Below, piece by piece: positions 11,457-16,833 of a stretch of 64,000 nucleotides of DNA (its first letter is position 1; each line of letters starts with the position of its first letter). This DNA is from Actinomycetota bacterium (lineage in GTDB: Bacteria; Actinomycetota; Thermoleophilia; Gaiellales; Gaiellaceae). The stretch is from NCBI GenBank assembly GCA_005884575.1, contig VAWW01000058.1:12896-76895 (forward strand). The letters are read 5' to 3'. The notes beneath the pieces are model-generated. The model did no database searches. It saw nothing but the letters and a program-made list of their open reading frames with translations, and was not told where the DNA came from. The position numbers and the translations under genes were made by a program.

Positions 11457-12275
11457 TCACTCGCCGGCGACGTCGCGCCGCAGGAACACGAGGTACGCGG
11501 CGATGAGCGGGATCACGATGTAGAGCGAGCAGACCCACAGGGCGCGCACGACCGGCGCCCAGTCGGCGGGTGTGCGCAGGAAGCCGTGCCACGCCTCGAA
11601 CTGCGTGCCGAGCAGGTACGCGCGGAAGCTCTCCGTCCCGGGCAGCACGCCGATCAGCTGCATCAGGAGCGCCCACATCAACGTCCCGACGACCGAGGCC
11701 GCGCTGTTGCGCGTGATCGTGGAGAGCATGAGGCCGAATGCGGCGATGCCGGCGAGCGGGAGCACGTAGACCGCGAGGCTGGCGGCGAGGAGGCCGATCG
11801 AGTGACCGACGGGGACCGTCGTTCCCGACAGCGACGTCAGCGGATGCAGGCCCCAGGCGATCGTCCCCGCGAGCGCGCCGACGAGTCCCATCGCGAACAC
11901 GAGCACCACCGTGTAGCTGAACGTCGCGAGCAGCTTCCCGGCAAAGATCTCGCCGCGCTCGCGCGAGCGTGTGAGGATCGTCTTCAGCGTCCCGTTGTGG
12001 CTCTCCGACGCGACGATGTCCCCTGCGACGAGCGCCGTGATTAGCGGCAACCCCCAGATCGACATGAAGAAGAGGACGACGAACGGCGTCGCGAGGCCGG
12101 TGTCGCGGAGATAGCGGCCGAGCGGAACGTCCGTCGGCCCGTTGCCCGACTGGATCACGAGCACGACGACGAAGATGATCGGCACGACCACCGCCGCGCC
12201 GAGTCCGAGGTAGGTGCGCTTCTGCGCCAGGAGCTTCGCGATCTCCCAGCGGTAGACCCGCGCGACCGCCGTCAA
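11457..12275 (-). CDS. ABC-2 type transporter permease
   Basis: A 272-residue integral membrane protein with about six hydrophobic helices (for example YLGLGAAVVVPIIFVVVLVI near the N-terminus) and the cytoplasmic ESHNGTLKTILTRS-type segment of ABC-2 permeases. The likely start is TTG at 12275, which overlaps the stop of the ATPase gene by 4 nt (TTGA), indicating translational coupling. It is the last gene of a five-gene operon that starts with a two-component system. ABC-2 exporters of this kind move lipids, polysaccharides or antibiotics outward; the substrate is unknown. Confidence 0.85.
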   Translation of the reverse strand: MTAVARVYRWEIAKLLAQKRTYLGLGAAVVVPIIFVVVLVIQSGNGPTDVPLGRYLRDTGLATPFVVLFFMSIWGLPLITALVAGDIVASESHNGTLKTILTRSRERGEIFAGKLLATFSYTVVLVFAMGLVGALAGTIAWGLHPLTSLSGTTVPVGHSIGLLAASLAVYVLPLAGIAAFGLMLSTITRNSAASVVGTLMWALLMQLIGVLPGTESFRAYLLGTQFEAWHGFLRTPADWAPVVRALWVCSLYIVIPLIAAYLVFLRRDVAGE

Positions 12276-13222
12276 GCGACGATCGCTTCTCGCGTCGCGC
12301 GCGCGGGCTCGTCGTCGTCGGACGTCAGGCCGAGGAAGAGATCCTCGAGGCTCGCGGTCTGGGGGACGAGCGCGGTGACGCCGATGCGTGCCTGGCCGAG
12401 GGCGATCGAGAGCGCCGCGACCGCGTCCTCGTCCGCTTGGAAGCACAGCTCGCCCTCGACGACGCGGACATCGTCGACGCCCGCCTGTGCGGAACAGAGC
12501 ATCCGCGCGCGCTCGAGCTCGGCCGTGCGGATCCGGTAGCCGCCGCCGGCGGTCGCGAGCAGCTCCTCGAGGCGGCCCTCGTAGACGATGCGGCCCCTGC
12601 GGATGATCGCGACACGATTGCAGAGCTCCTCGACCTCGGTCAGGAGGTGGCTCGAGAGCAGCACGGTGATTCCCTCCGCCGACAGGCGACGGACGAGGTC
12701 GCGCATGTCGCGCATGCCCGAGGGATCGAGTCCGGTCGTCGGCTCGTCGAGCAGCAGCAGCTGCGGGCTGCGGAGCAGCGAGGCGGCGATCCCGAGCCGC
12801 TGGCGCATCCCGTGCGAGTACGCGCCGACGTGGTCGTGCTGCCGCTCGCGCAGCTCGACGAGCTCGAGCACCTCGTCGATCTGTGCCCTCGCGTCGCCGC
12901 CGTCGTAGTCCGCGAGCAGGCGGAGGTTCTTGTGCGCGGAGAGGTACGGATAGAAGCGCGGTCCCTCGACGAAGCCGGCGACGCCGTCGAGCGCCTTCGC
13001 CCCGTCGACGACCGGGTCCCGGCCGAAGAGCTGCGCGGAACCCTCGGTCGGGCGGATCAGTCCGAGCAGCATCCGCAGCGATGTCGTCTTCCCGGCGCCG
13101 TTCGGTCCGAGGTAGCCGAAGACGTCGCCGCGCTCGACGGTCAGGTCGACGCGGTCGACCGCGACGATCTCGCCGTACCGCTTGACGAGCGCGCGCGCTG
13201 CGACGGGAGGTGCGTCGCTCAT
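12272..13222 (-). CDS. ABC transporter ATP-binding protein
   Basis: A 316-residue ATPase of the ABC-2/DrrA type. The Walker A motif is GPNGAGKTTS, the signature motif is YSHGMRQRLGIA, and Walker B is LLLLDEPTTGLDP. A C-terminal extension of about 90 residues follows the core, as in DrrA- and CcmA-like proteins. ATG start; the ATGA at 13222-13219 overlaps the stop of the LolA-like gene, and its own stop overlaps the permease start. It should drive the neighbouring permease. Confidence 0.9.
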   Translation of the reverse strand: MSDAPPVAARALVKRYGEIVAVDRVDLTVERGDVFGYLGPNGAGKTTSLRMLLGLIRPTEGSAQLFGRDPVVDGAKALDGVAGFVEGPRFYPYLSAHKNLRLLADYDGGDARAQIDEVLELVELRERQHDHVGAYSHGMRQRLGIAASLLRSPQLLLLDEPTTGLDPSGMRDMRDLVRRLSAEGITVLLSSHLLTEVEELCNRVAIIRRGRIVYEGRLEELLATAGGGYRIRTAELERARMLCSAQAGVDDVRVVEGELCFQADEDAVAALSIALGQARIGVTALVPQTASLEDLFLGLTSDDDEPARATREAIVA

Positions 13223-14379
13223 CCGAGGCTGCGCGCGGCGGCCTCGGCCGCGGCCGGTGGGAGGGATCCGGCGAGCACGAAGTCGACTCCGCCGCGCCGC
13301 CATTCGACGACGGTGCCGAGCTGCGTCGCGAGCTCGTGCGCGGTGACGCCGTCGAGCGCGACCGTCGGCAGGCCCGAGAGCATGCCGGTGTTGCCGTGCG
13401 CGGCCGTGTCCGAGGCCTTGCTCTCGACCAGCACGATCGCGCCGAGCCCCTGGCCGTAGACGGCGAGCACGGTCTTGCCGCCGACGAGCCGGACGTCCTT
13501 GCGCGGCAGGCCGACGAGCGTGTCCGGGGCCGTGACGGGGAAGTCGGTGGCCGCAGTCACCGCGTCGAGCCCGCTGACGGTGCTCGCGTCGTGGCCTGCA
13601 ACGCCGCCAGAGTGGTCGCCCAGATCGACGACCTTCGCACCGGCCGGCGGCGCGACGTTCACGTCTCCGTCCGCGATCGGGCCGTAGGAGATGTTCGTCG
13701 CCTTCAGCTCGAGCACCGGCGACGAGTTCCCCTGCGCGTAGACGGCGACGCGCAACGGGATTCCCTGCGCGGCGTCCCACGCGAGCTGCACCGAGCCGAG
13801 CAGGCCGCCGTCGTGCTTCGGCGAGACCTCGACCGTGTACGCGGGCTGCCCCGCGACGTTCGCCGGCTGCGCGCCCGAGACCGTCGCCTTCTCCGCGATC
13901 TTCGACAGGAAGTCCGAGATCTCCGCGACCGTCGGAGGGCCGGACGACGTGTCGGGCTTCTTCGCCGGCAGCGTGAAGCGGTACACGGTGTTCGACGAAG
14001 CGTCGTAGACGGTCGCCTTCTCCGTGTTCCAGACGACCTGGACGTCGCCGGCGCTCGACTGCAGCTCGAGCCGCCCGCGGCCGTCGTTCGTCGCCCAGAA
14101 GCGGCCTGTCGCGCCGGACATCAGCGCCGAGCCGGCCTGGCCGAGCAGGGCGCCGGACGGGAAGAGCTTGTTCGTGAAGACGATGTCGGCACTGATCCCC
14201 TGCGGTTTCGGCGCGGCGAGCGAGTCGTGGATCGCCTGGGGCAGCGGCTTTGCGGGCGGCGTGTCGCCGCCGCCGCCGGAAGCGGCGACGGCGAATCCCG
14301 CGGCGGCCGCTGCGAGCGCGGCGACCGAGACGAGGAGGACGATCAAACGGCTGGTCGGGAGGGTGCGGAAGAGCTTCAA
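13219..14379 (-). CDS. LolA-like exported lipoprotein-carrier fold protein
   Basis: A 386-residue exported protein. An N-terminal membrane anchor or signal (residues about 10-33) precedes a Gly/Pro spacer. A long beta-rich region follows that resembles the LolA/RseB fold: GRLELQSSAGDVQVVWNTEKATVYDASSNTVYRF-type strands and a second half PAYTVEVSPKHDG. Such proteins bind lipid or acyl chains or act as envelope sensors. The start is TTG at 14379, overlapping the histidine-kinase stop by 4 nt, with AAGGA just upstream. Its place between the kinase and the ABC exporter suggests it feeds or senses the exporter substrate; that is inference. Confidence 0.72.
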   Translation of the reverse strand: MKLFRTLPTSRLIVLLVSVAALAAAAAGFAVAASGGGGDTPPAKPLPQAIHDSLAAPKPQGISADIVFTNKLFPSGALLGQAGSALMSGATGRFWATNDGRGRLELQSSAGDVQVVWNTEKATVYDASSNTVYRFTLPAKKPDTSSGPPTVAEISDFLSKIAEKATVSGAQPANVAGQPAYTVEVSPKHDGGLLGSVQLAWDAAQGIPLRVAVYAQGNSSPVLELKATNISYGPIADGDVNVAPPAGAKVVDLGDHSGGVAGHDASTVSGLDAVTAATDFPVTAPDTLVGLPRKDVRLVGGKTVLAVYGQGLGAIVLVESKASDTAAHGNTGMLSGLPTVALDGVTAHELATQLGTVVEWRRGGVDFVLAGSLPPAAAEAAARSLG

Positions 14380-15752
14380 GGAAATCCTTTCTCGGGTTCG
14401 TCGCCGCTCGTTCTAACCGCGGAGCCTGAGAGATCTCTGAGAGCCGGCAGCTCGATCGTGAAGCGGGATCCCCGCACGTAGGCCCGGCCGCCATGCCGCT
14501 CGGCCGTGGCGCGGACGATCGCGAGGCCGAGCCCGGAGCCGCCCACGGCGCGGCCGCCGCGCCAGAAGCGCTGGAAGGCGAGCTCCGTCTCCTCGAGCCG
14601 CAGGCCCTCGCCCTCGTCGGCGACGGTGAGCCGGGCGACCCCGTCGATCTGCTCGGCGCTGACGGTGATCCGGCCGCCCTCGGGCCCGTGCCGGAGCGCG
14701 TTCTGAACGAGGTTCGCCAGCGCGCGCTCGAGCGCGGCCCGGTCGCCCCGGACGCGCACGGGCCCGCTCGCGACGGCGTCCACCCGGCCGCCCGCCGCCT
14801 CGAGGGCGAGCTCGTCGAGGCTGACGATCTCCTGCGGCGTCCCGGCCGCCTCTTCGCGGGACAGTGCGAGCAGGTCGTCCGCGAGCGTGGCGAGCCGCTC
14901 GGCGTCCTGCTCCAGGTCGGCGAGCACCTCCGGTGTTGCGCCGTGCCGCGCGAGATAGTAGACGTTGCCGCGCAGCGCGGTGAGCGGCGTGCGCAGCTCG
15001 TGGGACGCATCGGCGAGGAAGCGGCGCTCCGCGTCGCGCGCCCGTTCGAGGCTCGCGAGCATCGCGTTCAGCGTCGTTCCGAGCCGGCCGACCTCGTCGC
15101 CGGTCTCGGTCGCCGGCAGCCGCCGCCGCGGATCGCCGGTGCGCTCGATCTCCGTCGCGGCGGCGGCGAGCCGCGTCAGCGGCCGGAGCGCGCGGCGCAT
15201 CAGCACGGCGACGGCGATCGCTCCGAGCCCGGCGGCGACGAGACCGGCCAGGAGAACGTAGTCCTGGACGCTGGCGATCGTGTCGTCGATGTCGCGCCTC
15301 GACGCCGAGACGACGACCGCGCCGCCGGCGGCGGGCCCGCCGAAGTCCGCGAGCGGCGCTGCGTAGAGCCGCAGCCGATCCGCTCCGAGCGTGCCATCGG
15401 CGTAGCCGCCGCGTCCGTCCCGGATTGCGTGCGGCACGAGCTCACCGGCCGGCAGTCTGCGCCCGCCGAGCGAGAGCGAGCGCGCGACGATCCGGCCGTG
15501 CCGGTCGATCACCTCGACCGTCATCTGCGTCCCGCCGAGCGGCGAGTCGAGTGCGCCGGGCGTCGTCAGCAGCGCGGGTGCCGACGCGTTCAGCTGCGCG
15601 ACCTCGACCGCGCGTTCCCGCAGCGTCCGGTCGAGCGAGCGGTGGAGATGCCGCGACGCGAGCACGTCGACCGTTCCGCCGACGACGACGAGCGCGAGCA
15701 GGATCGAGATCGCGGCCGCGACGACCGACCGCAGCTGGACCGAGCGCATCAT
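14376..15752 (-). CDS. sensor histidine kinase, HAMP type (MprB/EnvZ-like)
   Basis: A 458-residue membrane kinase. Two membrane helices (residues about 8-28 and about 150-175) flank an extracellular sensor. A HAMP domain follows (RRALRPLTRLAAAATEIERTGD), then a HisKA domain with phospho-acceptor His251 in FLADASHELRTPL, then an HATPase_c domain with NLVQNALRHGPEGG and GGSGLGLAIV. The start ATGATG overlaps the response-regulator stop by 4 nt. Cognate partner is therefore the regulator just upstream. It likely controls its own operon, including the exporter. Confidence 0.93.
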   Translation of the reverse strand: MMRSVQLRSVVAAAISILLALVVVGGTVDVLASRHLHRSLDRTLRERAVEVAQLNASAPALLTTPGALDSPLGGTQMTVEVIDRHGRIVARSLSLGGRRLPAGELVPHAIRDGRGGYADGTLGADRLRLYAAPLADFGGPAAGGAVVVSASRRDIDDTIASVQDYVLLAGLVAAGLGAIAVAVLMRRALRPLTRLAAAATEIERTGDPRRRLPATETGDEVGRLGTTLNAMLASLERARDAERRFLADASHELRTPLTALRGNVYYLARHGATPEVLADLEQDAERLATLADDLLALSREEAAGTPQEIVSLDELALEAAGGRVDAVASGPVRVRGDRAALERALANLVQNALRHGPEGGRITVSAEQIDGVARLTVADEGEGLRLEETELAFQRFWRGGRAVGGSGLGLAIVRATAERHGGRAYVRGSRFTIELPALRDLSGSAVRTSGDEPEKGFP

Positions 15753-16414
15753 CGGCCGAGGACGAAGCCTGCGCCGCGCACCGTTTCGATCAGCGGCGGG
15801 TCGCCGAGCTTGCGCCGCAGGTAGGATACGTAGCGGTCGACCGCGTTGAAGCTTGCGGCGCCCGGGCTGCCCCAGACGCGTTCGAGCGCGACTTCGCGCC
15901 GGACGACCTGCCGCGCGTTGAGCAGGAGCAGCTCGAGCAGGTCCGCCTCGCGCGCGCTCAACCCGAGGTCGCGTCCGCCGCGCCGTGCGGTCCGCGTGCG
16001 CACGTCGAAGAGGACGTCGCCGAATGCGAGCAGCTCCTCCGGCTCGCGCCCGCGGCGCAGGAGCGCGCGCACGCGCGCGAGTAGCTCCTCCGCCGCGAAC
16101 GGCTTGACGAGATAGTCGTCCGCGCCGGCGTCCAGACCTGCAACGCGATCCGCGACGGCATCCCGCGCGGTCAGCATGAGGATCGGCACCGCGAGTCCCT
16201 TCCCGCGAAGCCGCCGCGAGAGCGCGAGGCCGTCGACGCCCGGCATCGTCACGTCGACGACGACCAGGTCGGGAACGGAGCGCTCGACAGCCGCGAGCGC
16301 GGCACCGCCGTCGGCAGCCGCCTCGACGGCGTGGCCCTCGGCCTCGAGCGTCCGCGTGAGCATGCGCCGGATCGGCGCGTCGTCGTCGACGATCAGGATC
16401 GCGGCGGGGGCCAC
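15749..16414 (-). CDS. OmpR-family response regulator (MprA-like)
   Basis: A 221-residue regulator with a receiver domain (residues 1-118) and a winged-helix DNA-binding domain (about 130-221). The acidic pocket is DDD at 10-12, the phosphorylation site is Asp54 (VVVDVTMPG), and KPF follows. The C-terminal domain ends with VDRYVSYLRRKLGDPPLIETVRGAGFVL, the standard OmpR pattern. Start is GTG. First gene of the five-gene operon; no obvious direct-repeat binding site could be made out in the 30 nt before the cupin gene. Confidence 0.95.
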   Translation of the reverse strand: MAPAAILIVDDDAPIRRMLTRTLEAEGHAVEAAADGGAALAAVERSVPDLVVVDVTMPGVDGLALSRRLRGKGLAVPILMLTARDAVADRVAGLDAGADDYLVKPFAAEELLARVRALLRRGREPEELLAFGDVLFDVRTRTARRGGRDLGLSAREADLLELLLLNARQVVRREVALERVWGSPGAASFNAVDRYVSYLRRKLGDPPLIETVRGAGFVLGR

Positions 16415-16443
16415 GCCCCGCAGGGTACGCCGCGCGCGCTAGC

Positions 16444-16833
16444 TCAGTCCGTCCACCAGTCCTGCTCGATCTCGGCGTCGCCGGGGCCGGTGCTGGGCGC
16501 GCCGATCGCGAGCAGCTCGAGACCGTCGGGCCCGGCCTCGAAGGCGCGCGTCGTGTCCTTCGGCACGCGCACGGCATCCCACTGGCGCAGCTCGACGACC
16601 TCGTCCTCGAGCTTGATCCGGCCGCTCCCCGAGACGATGACGTAGACCTCCTCCTGCGTCTTGTGCCGGTGCCCGAAGCCGCGGAAGTCGGGAGCGAGTC
16701 GCTGGTAGCTGATCCCCATGTTCTCGAGCTCGAGCGGCTCGCGTGCGAAGCGCGCCTCGAGGTCCGGCGACAGCCCGAACGCCGGCGCGGCGTCGTCGAC
16801 GTCCTTCAGGTTCTTGAGCGTGTAGTCGGCCAT
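16444..16833 (-). CDS. cupin-domain protein, 129 aa
   Basis: A 129-residue single-domain cupin. The first cupin motif is seen as GFGHRHKTQEEVYVIVSGSG, with His, His and Glu as metal ligands. The second motif (VRVPKDTTRAFEAG) lacks the usual histidine (Thr/Arg at its place), so metal binding may be weak. No function can be assigned; small cupins of this type are often sugar-related or regulatory. The gene is upstream of the two-component operon on the same strand with a 29-nt gap, so it may be its first gene. A strong hairpin lies just upstream of its start (16853-16880). Confidence 0.8.
   Translation of the reverse strand: MADYTLKNLKDVDDAAPAFGLSPDLEARFAREPLELENMGISYQRLAPDFRGFGHRHKTQEEVYVIVSGSGRIKLEDEVVELRQWDAVRVPKDTTRAFEAGPDGLELLAIGAPSTGPGDAEIEQDWWTD

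What the first reader, a model, noticed from the sequence alone, without database searches (positions are those of the whole stretch)
11457..16414. Five-gene, fully overlapping operon: two-component system, LolA-like lipoprotein, ABC exporter
All four junctions share 4-nt overlaps (ATGA or TTGA types). A LolA/RseB-like exported protein sits between sensor kinase and ABC-2 exporter. Family knowledge says LolA-like folds bind lipid; the arrangement suggests a system that senses and exports an envelope lipid or antibiotic. Not an arrangement I can name.
Basis: partly seen in the sequence, partly recalled or inferred. Interest (0 to 1): 0.6.

Follow-up and report, generated by a model that had tools for sequence, protein, structure and literature searches.

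The report
Stress-switched exporter with RseB-like partner
A soil actinobacterium carries a five-gene unit in which a membrane sensor and its DNA-binding partner appear to switch on, through a newly spotted control site, an export pump paired with a lipid-binding-type protein; the pump-plus-partner core recurs across the phylum and I found no published study of it.

Summary
The five genes and all four 4-nt overlaps are real. The 386-aa protein is not a lipoprotein, because it has no cysteine. Its predicted structure matches both domains of RseB/MucB, so it is RseB-like rather than a plain LolA. It has no Pfam hit.

Relatives show what belongs together. The core is RseB-like gene, ABC ATPase, ABC-2 permease, in that order, in nearly all Thermoleophilia relatives and in most other actinobacterial relatives checked. 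The two-component system (TCS) is the optional part: upstream, downstream, divergent or absent.

A new element was found inside the 3' end of the kinase gene at 14410-14442. Two 11-bp-spaced direct repeats (TCTCAGAGATCTCTCAG) are followed by a -10-like TAGAAC, 30 nt before the RseB-like start codon. The full pattern occurs without mismatch once in the 4.16-Mb genome. It is present in 15 of 20 TCS-linked relatives and in none of 19 without TCS, and stays conserved where it is non-coding. Related repeats lie between divergent TCS and RseB-like genes in four distant actinobacteria.

Best reading: a TCS-controlled envelope-stress module. The response regulator drives an internal promoter for an exporter and its extracytoplasmic lipid-binding partner. 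Cargo, signal and binding remain inferred.

The parts
15749..16414 (-). OmpR-family response regulator, 221 aa (GTG start)
   Evidence: Pfam Response_reg 2.6e-32 and Trans_reg_C 5.5e-19; nearest solved chains are M. tuberculosis PhoP and PrrA
14376..15752 (-). Sensor histidine kinase, 458 aa, 2 TM segments, HAMP, HisKA, HATPase; extracytoplasmic domain resembles that of WalK/YycG
   Evidence: Pfam; TM segments 10-28 and 166-184; sensor model pLDDT 84; Foldseek best match a WalK model E 5.8e-7 and the WalK domain crystal 4ywz E 3.6e-4
13219..14379 (-). RseB/MucB-like two-domain exported protein, 386 aa (TTG start), N-terminal hydrophobic anchor or signal, no cysteine
   Evidence: No Pfam/NCBIfam hit; AlphaFold2 pLDDT 76; Foldseek top 11 all RseB, E 5.2e-13, 356 columns of 386 aa; no Cys, TM 13-31
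12272..13222 (-). ABC ATPase, 316 aa, DrrA/BcrA-like
   Evidence: ABC_tran 6.3e-27; TIGR01188 drrA 227 bits, below its 312 cutoff; Walker A, Walker B and H-loop motifs
11457..12275 (-). ABC-2 permease, 272 aa, six TM-like segments (TTG start)
   Evidence: ABC2_membrane_4 3.2e-12; six hydrophobic segments
14410..14442 (-). Candidate response-regulator operator plus promoter inside the 3' end of the kinase gene: TCTCAGAGATCTCTCAG (14426-14442), then -10-like TAGAAC (14410-14415)
   Evidence: Only unmismatched match of the full pattern in the 4.16-Mb genome; 0.02 expected in the window; conserved in TCS-linked relatives, intergenic in some
14385..14392 (-). Ribosome-binding site AGAAAGGA of the RseB-like gene
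   Evidence: Sequence upstream of TTG 14379; similar GAGAAAGGAT in relatives
16422..16427 (-). Candidate -10 element TACCCT, 7 nt before the response-regulator GTG: likely leaderless promoter of the TCS genes
   Evidence: TANNNT 6-8 nt before the RR start in the window and in L017, L019, L020, L021, L022, L031, L033, L092, L093

Best explanation
A dedicated envelope-stress module. A WalK-like membrane sensor kinase phosphorylates a PhoP-like response regulator. The regulator binds two 11-bp-spaced TCTCAG repeats inside the end of the kinase gene and switches on the RseB-like gene, the ABC ATPase and the ABC-2 permease. The exporter removes an amphipathic molecule (an envelope lipid or a membrane-active antibiotic) from the membrane. 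The RseB-like protein, held or released outside by its N-terminal hydrophobic segment, binds that molecule and works primarily with the transporter, as acceptor or as load sensor, and may report back to the kinase. Shown here: gene content, order, predicted fold, the conserved site and its co-occurrence with the TCS. Inferred: binding of the regulator to the site, activation rather than repression, the cargo, and any contact of the RseB-like protein with transporter or kinase.
For: RseB-like fold over both domains. The RseB-like, ATPase, permease order is complete in 28 of 34 Thermoleophilia loci, with two more cut by a contig end inside the ATPase. The ATPase lies directly downstream in 20 of 23 non-Thermoleophilia loci. 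Genes outside the cassette differ between relatives. The TCS varies in place: 15 upstream, 3 downstream, 16 not detected. The element is present without mismatch once in the own genome. In the class, 40 places with at most 2 mismatches against 1 for the reversed control; of 15 examined hits with 0-1 mismatch, 14 lie at this module. Present in 15 of 20 TCS-linked loci and 0 of 19 without. Intergenic, hence conserved as DNA, in L017, L027, L028, L033. Repeats in 4 of 4 distant loci with divergent TCS and 0 of 19 without. Nearest solved relatives of the ATPase are lipid or drug transporters (ABCA family, Rv1218c).
Against: No experiment. Cargo is unknown; the permease has no significant solved relative. 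The loci are related, so the co-occurrence counts are not independent. The repeat pattern for the distant loci was framed after three of the four had been seen by eye. About half of the Thermoleophilia loci keep the trio without a nearby TCS, so the kinase is not essential to the core. L048, L064 and L065 keep TCS plus RseB-like protein without the ABC genes nearby. No consensus sigma-70 promoter was found in the region.
Confidence: 0.5

Rival explanations
1. Lipid delivery for normal envelope building (LprG/Rv1410-like): the ABC-2 transporter moves a cell-envelope lipid out of the membrane and the RseB-like protein carries it outward. The TCS only tunes the amount.
For: The trio is kept without a nearby TCS in most of the 16 TCS-less Thermoleophilia loci and in most non-Thermoleophilia loci, so the RseB-like protein's constant partner is the transporter. 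LprG-Rv1410 is a published precedent for a lipid-pocket protein encoded with an exporter (PMC10576003).
Against: The distribution is patchy among same-family genomes (only G000, G003, G005, G009 and G014), unlike a housekeeping route. A dedicated operator and TCS fit an inducible response better.
Confidence: 0.25
2. Kinase co-regulator: the RseB-like protein is mainly an accessory sensor of the kinase, as YycH/YycI are for WalK or RseB for RseA. The ABC genes are simply the output.
For: MucB is a regulator whose cavity senses lipids (PMC7400510). The kinase sensor resembles that of WalK, whose accessory proteins YycH and YycI modulate it (PMC7355866). The gene follows the kinase directly. L048, L064 and L065 keep TCS plus RseB-like gene without the ABC genes nearby.
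Against: The RseB-like gene stays with the ABC genes far more often than with the kinase. The operator lies before the RseB-like gene, making it a likely TCS target.
Confidence: 0.15
3. NosDFY-like machine: the ABC-2 transporter moves no free substrate but drives conformational work on the extracytoplasmic RseB-like protein.
For: The only solved relative listed for the permease is NosY, not significant (E 0.52); NosF is among the ATPase matches. NosDFY also pairs an ABC-2 transporter with an outside partner protein (own knowledge).
Against: NosD is a beta-helix protein in a copper pathway (own knowledge); nothing of that kind is seen here.
Confidence: 0.07
4. Ordinary stacking: an unrelated TCS happens to lie beside an uncharacterised ABC operon, and the repeats in the kinase tail are conserved as protein.
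For: The TCS is missing or elsewhere in about half of the loci. The kinase tail reads LRDLS in several relatives.
Against: The element is kept in loci where it lies beyond the kinase stop codon (L017, L027, L028, L033), is placed 30 nt before the RseB-like start in most, and is absent when the TCS is absent.
Confidence: 0.03

Closest known systems
RseB/MucB (sigma-E regulatory periplasmic lipid sensor)
   Same: Two-domain fold, matched over about 350 columns; extracytoplasmic
   Different: Encoded with an ABC-2 exporter and a TCS, not with a sigma factor and RseA/MucA; sequence identity only 12-17%; no Pfam RseB hit in the window protein
LolA with LolCDE
   Same: LolA-superfamily fold; partner is an ABC transporter
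   Different: The permease here is ABC-2 type, not FtsX/LolCE type; an extra C-terminal domain; relatives are actinobacteria
LprG-Rv1410 (mycobacterial triacylglyceride export)
   Same: Lipid-pocket-type protein encoded next to an exporter (PMC10576003)
   Different: Rv1410 is an MFS transporter; LprG is a lipoprotein; no linked TCS (own knowledge)
WalRK-YycHI
   Same: WalK-like sensor domain; exported accessory-type protein encoded after the kinase
   Different: YycH/YycI are kinase modulators without a linked ABC exporter (own knowledge); regulator and kinase fall below the NCBIfam YycF/WalK cutoffs
BcrAB / lantibiotic-immunity (LanFEG) and DrrAB exporters with TCS
   Same: Same ABC-2 exporter class; ATPase hits drrA and gallidermin models; such exporters are often TCS-controlled (own knowledge)
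   Different: All hits are below the curated cutoffs; those systems lack an RseB-like partner (own knowledge)
NosDFY
   Same: ABC-2 pair plus an outside partner
   Different: NosD is a beta-helix protein; the NosY match is not significant

Membership tests
RseB/MucB | LolA-like N-terminal domain plus small C-terminal domain | tested here: met
   Foldseek against PDB: RseB chains rank 1-11, 342-356 columns, E 5e-13 to 4e-11; TM-score about 0.45/0.57
RseB/MucB | Sequence match to Pfam MucB_RseB | tested here: not met
   No hit for the window protein; weak hits in some relatives, above cutoff only in L083 among those tested (25.8 vs 22.3 bits)
RseB/MucB | Linked sigma-E factor and RseA/MucA anti-sigma gene | tested here: not met
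   Neighbours are TCS and ABC genes; no sigma/anti-sigma pair recognised beside the gene
RseB/MucB | Binds lipids and regulates a signalling protein | not testable with these tools
   Needs purified protein
LolA chaperone | LolA equivalog model | tested here: not met
   No NCBIfam hit; best relative 29.9 bits against cutoff 112
Lipoprotein (LprG/LppX type) | Lipobox cysteine at the end of the signal peptide | tested here: not met
   No cysteine in the 386-aa protein
DrrAB / BcrAB / lantibiotic-immunity exporters | Curated score cutoff of drrA, gallidermin or MutG models | tested here: not met
   227 of 312, 204 of 310 and 19 of 117 bits
ABC-2 exporter (general class) | ABC ATPase plus six-TM ABC-2 permease | tested here: met
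   Pfam above cutoff for both, six TM-like segments
OmpR/PhoB-type two-component system | Receiver plus winged-helix regulator; HAMP/HisKA/HATPase kinase with catalytic motifs | tested here: met
OmpR/PhoB-type two-component system | Binding to 11-bp-spaced direct repeats | tested here: inconclusive
   Repeats present and co-occurring with the TCS; binding itself not testable here
WalRK | YycF/WalK equivalog cutoff | tested here: not met
   145.7 of 340 bits for RR, 122.9 of 725 for HK

The most novel reading that the evidence does not exclude
The RseB-like protein is a load sensor for an ABC exporter: it binds the exported lipid or antibiotic outside the cell and tells a WalK-like kinase how busy the pump is. 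This would be a phylum-wide actinobacterial stress circuit with its own conserved operator, combining RseB-type lipid sensing with ABC export and two-component signalling.
Probability: 0.25. Interest if true: 0.7.

Novelty: new variant of a known kind. Interest (0 to 1): 0.52.

Why it matters
RseB is known as a proteobacterial sigma-factor regulator. Finding its two-domain fold as the near-constant partner of an ABC-2 exporter across actinobacteria, including genomes of Streptomyces type, points to an overlooked lipid- or drug-handling system in a phylum of antibiotic producers. The conserved operator gives an immediate testable handle (regulator binding, promoter mapping, inducer screen) in cultivable Solirubrobacter or Conexibacter.

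Tried and rejected
Single-domain LolA: rejected in favour of RseB/MucB from the fold search. Lipoprotein: no cysteine. Sequence search of the 386-aa protein against solved structures: nothing alone, only weak hits with profiles. The cupin-like gene upstream (about 16444-16832, from its sequence) as part of the operon: not kept in relatives. MprA as the regulator type: the published C. glutamicum MprA motif TKTTAAGAAM does not resemble the repeats (PMC12113857). Palindrome as the conserved feature: the AGAGATCTCT palindrome of the window is lost in Solirubrobacter (TGTCAAAGAACTCTCAAAG) while the direct repeat stays. Anti-phage defence: no PADLOC match for the RseB-like protein or permease; generic ATPase matches only. 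Consensus promoter scan: none found. Mirror-tree correlations of 0.84-0.95 between genes are not used as evidence, because there was no species-tree control. Literature: no paper in the library joins LolA/RseB-like proteins, TCS and ABC genes in actinobacteria; searches for Streptomyces coelicolor SCO4584-4586, my recollection of the S. coelicolor trio, gave two papers, neither about the genes by title or abstract and neither read.
Full report
Observation. The five genes lie on the minus strand at the stated coordinates: response regulator 16414-15749, histidine kinase 15752-14376, 386-aa protein 14379-13219, ABC ATPase 13222-12272, ABC-2 permease 12275-11457. The junctions are ATGA, TTGA, ATGA and TTGA. 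Relatives repeat the -4 junctions, all four of them in L016 and L021, so the gene calls, including two TTG starts, are sound.

The 386-aa protein. Alone it has no Pfam or NCBIfam hit and no solved relative by sequence. A model built from 13 sequences (pLDDT 76) matches RseB in the first 11 places (E 5e-13, about 350 alignment columns, so both domains), then LolA and MucB. The TM-scores are moderate (0.45/0.57) with high rmsd, so the relative placing of the two domains is uncertain. More distant family members carry weak RseB, LolA, DUF2092 and DUF4367 matches. It has one N-terminal hydrophobic segment (13-31) and no cysteine, so it is exported or anchored but not a lipoprotein.

The partners. 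The kinase has two membrane segments, and its outside domain models (pLDDT 84) closest to that of WalK/YycG. The regulator is OmpR-family, nearest among solved chains to M. tuberculosis PhoP and PrrA, and meets no curated equivalog cutoff among those shown. The ATPase and permease form an ABC-2 exporter pair. The nearest solved ATPases are ABCA lipid transporters, the Rv1218c multidrug pump and NosF.

What is conserved. The genome holds one copy. In 34 named loci (Gaiellaceae, Solirubrobacterales, other Thermoleophilia), the RseB-like, ATPase, permease order is complete in 28; two more (L019, L020) are cut by a contig end inside the ATPase, one (L023) ends just after the RseB-like gene, two (L043, L045) have a diverged ABC set, and one (L048) has none. 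The TCS is upstream in 15, downstream in 3 and not detected in 16, some of them cut short. Genes outside the cassette differ. Across the phylum, 53 of 396 sampled genomes have a relative. In 20 of 23 non-Thermoleophilia loci the same ABC ATPase family lies directly downstream, and wider stretches show the permease following. Four of the 23 (L064, L065, L067, L069) have a divergent TCS.

The control site. Upstream of the RseB-like gene, TCS-linked loci share TSTCANNGANCTCTCA-N11-TANAAC: two direct repeats 11 bp apart, then a -10-like box. In the window it lies at 14410-14442, inside the end of the kinase gene, 30 nt before the RseB-like start. The full pattern occurs without mismatch once in the 4.16-Mb genome; the two other hits have three mismatches, near control level. 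The repeat part alone has one further match. In 399 class genomes there are 40 places with at most two mismatches against 1 for the reversed pattern. Of the 15 examined hits with 0-1 mismatch, 14 are at this module; 17 of all 30 examined lie just upstream of a RseB-like gene, 11 of them at exactly the window's spacing. It is present in 15 of 20 TCS-linked loci and 0 of 19 TCS-less loci (Fisher p 8e-7, not corrected for relatedness). The TCS-downstream loci L024, L030 and L032 carry a diverged version (TGTCARAGTAATTTCARG or similar). In L017, L027, L028 and L033 it lies after the kinase stop codon, so it is kept as DNA. In distant actinobacteria with divergent TCS, 4 of 4 have TCWCAG repeats at 11-bp spacing between the two genes, and 0 of 19 without TCS have any within two mismatches; three of those four were seen by eye before the pattern was fixed. 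TCS-less Solirubrobacterales share a different element (CCTTTAG ... GCTANCCT).

A second promoter. TANNNT sits 6-8 nt before the regulator's start codon in the window and in nine relatives, which suggests leaderless transcription of the TCS genes. The five genes are therefore probably served by two promoters: one for the whole set and one, presumably regulator-controlled, for the last three.

Mechanism. Because the RseB-like gene stays with the ABC pair even when the TCS is gone, its first partner is most likely the transporter. Because the site appears only when the TCS is present and sits before the trio, the trio is most likely the TCS's target. The favoured model is stress-induced export of an amphipathic molecule, with the RseB-like protein binding it outside. 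MucB lipid sensing (PMC7400510), LprG-Rv1410 lipid hand-over (PMC10576003) and YycHI modulation of WalK (PMC7355866) are the precedents for its alternative roles. GerS in C. difficile shows that a LolA-like protein in a Gram-positive bacterium can instead be an allosteric activator (PMC8496864).

Limits. No cargo, signal, binding or expression data. Co-occurrence counts come from related genomes. Absence from the literature is limited to the open-access library searched.

Noticed in passing
L014 (G046:C105:21413-24901): A compressed version of the cassette: RR residues 6-156, RseB-like 226-372, ATPase 4-42 and permease 151-271 follow one another within about 1.5 kb; a decayed operon with serial deletions, or an assembly artefact.
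   Followed up: no
L045:5914-9525 and L043:923-4621: RseB-like paralogues followed by a different ABC set (ATPase 36-39% identical, then a second ATPase gene); L045 keeps one CTCTCAG half-site and TACCCT upstream.
   Followed up: partly
L031 and L033, between RR and HK: About 2.17 kb separates regulator and kinase in two Conexibacter, while HK and the trio stay adjacent.
   Followed up: no
L034-L047 upstream of the RseB-like gene: Several TCS-less Solirubrobacterales loci share a different promoter-like element, CCTTTAG about 20 nt before GCTANCCT.
   Followed up: no
L100:1501-1533 (G682): An unmismatched copy of the element lies 56 nt before an ABC ATPase that is followed by a MacB/FtsX-looking permease, with no RseB-like gene: possible second target, or chance.
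   Followed up: partly
L098:1501-1517 (G000:C88:29612-29628): The only other full match of the repeat part in the window's genome, beside a cydA-like gene, without the -10 box.
   Followed up: partly
L048 (Patulibacter medicamentivorans): TCS, repeats and RseB-like gene kept, but the ABC pair is replaced by an unrelated 952-aa gene that looks like a LuxR-type NTPase regulator.
   Followed up: no
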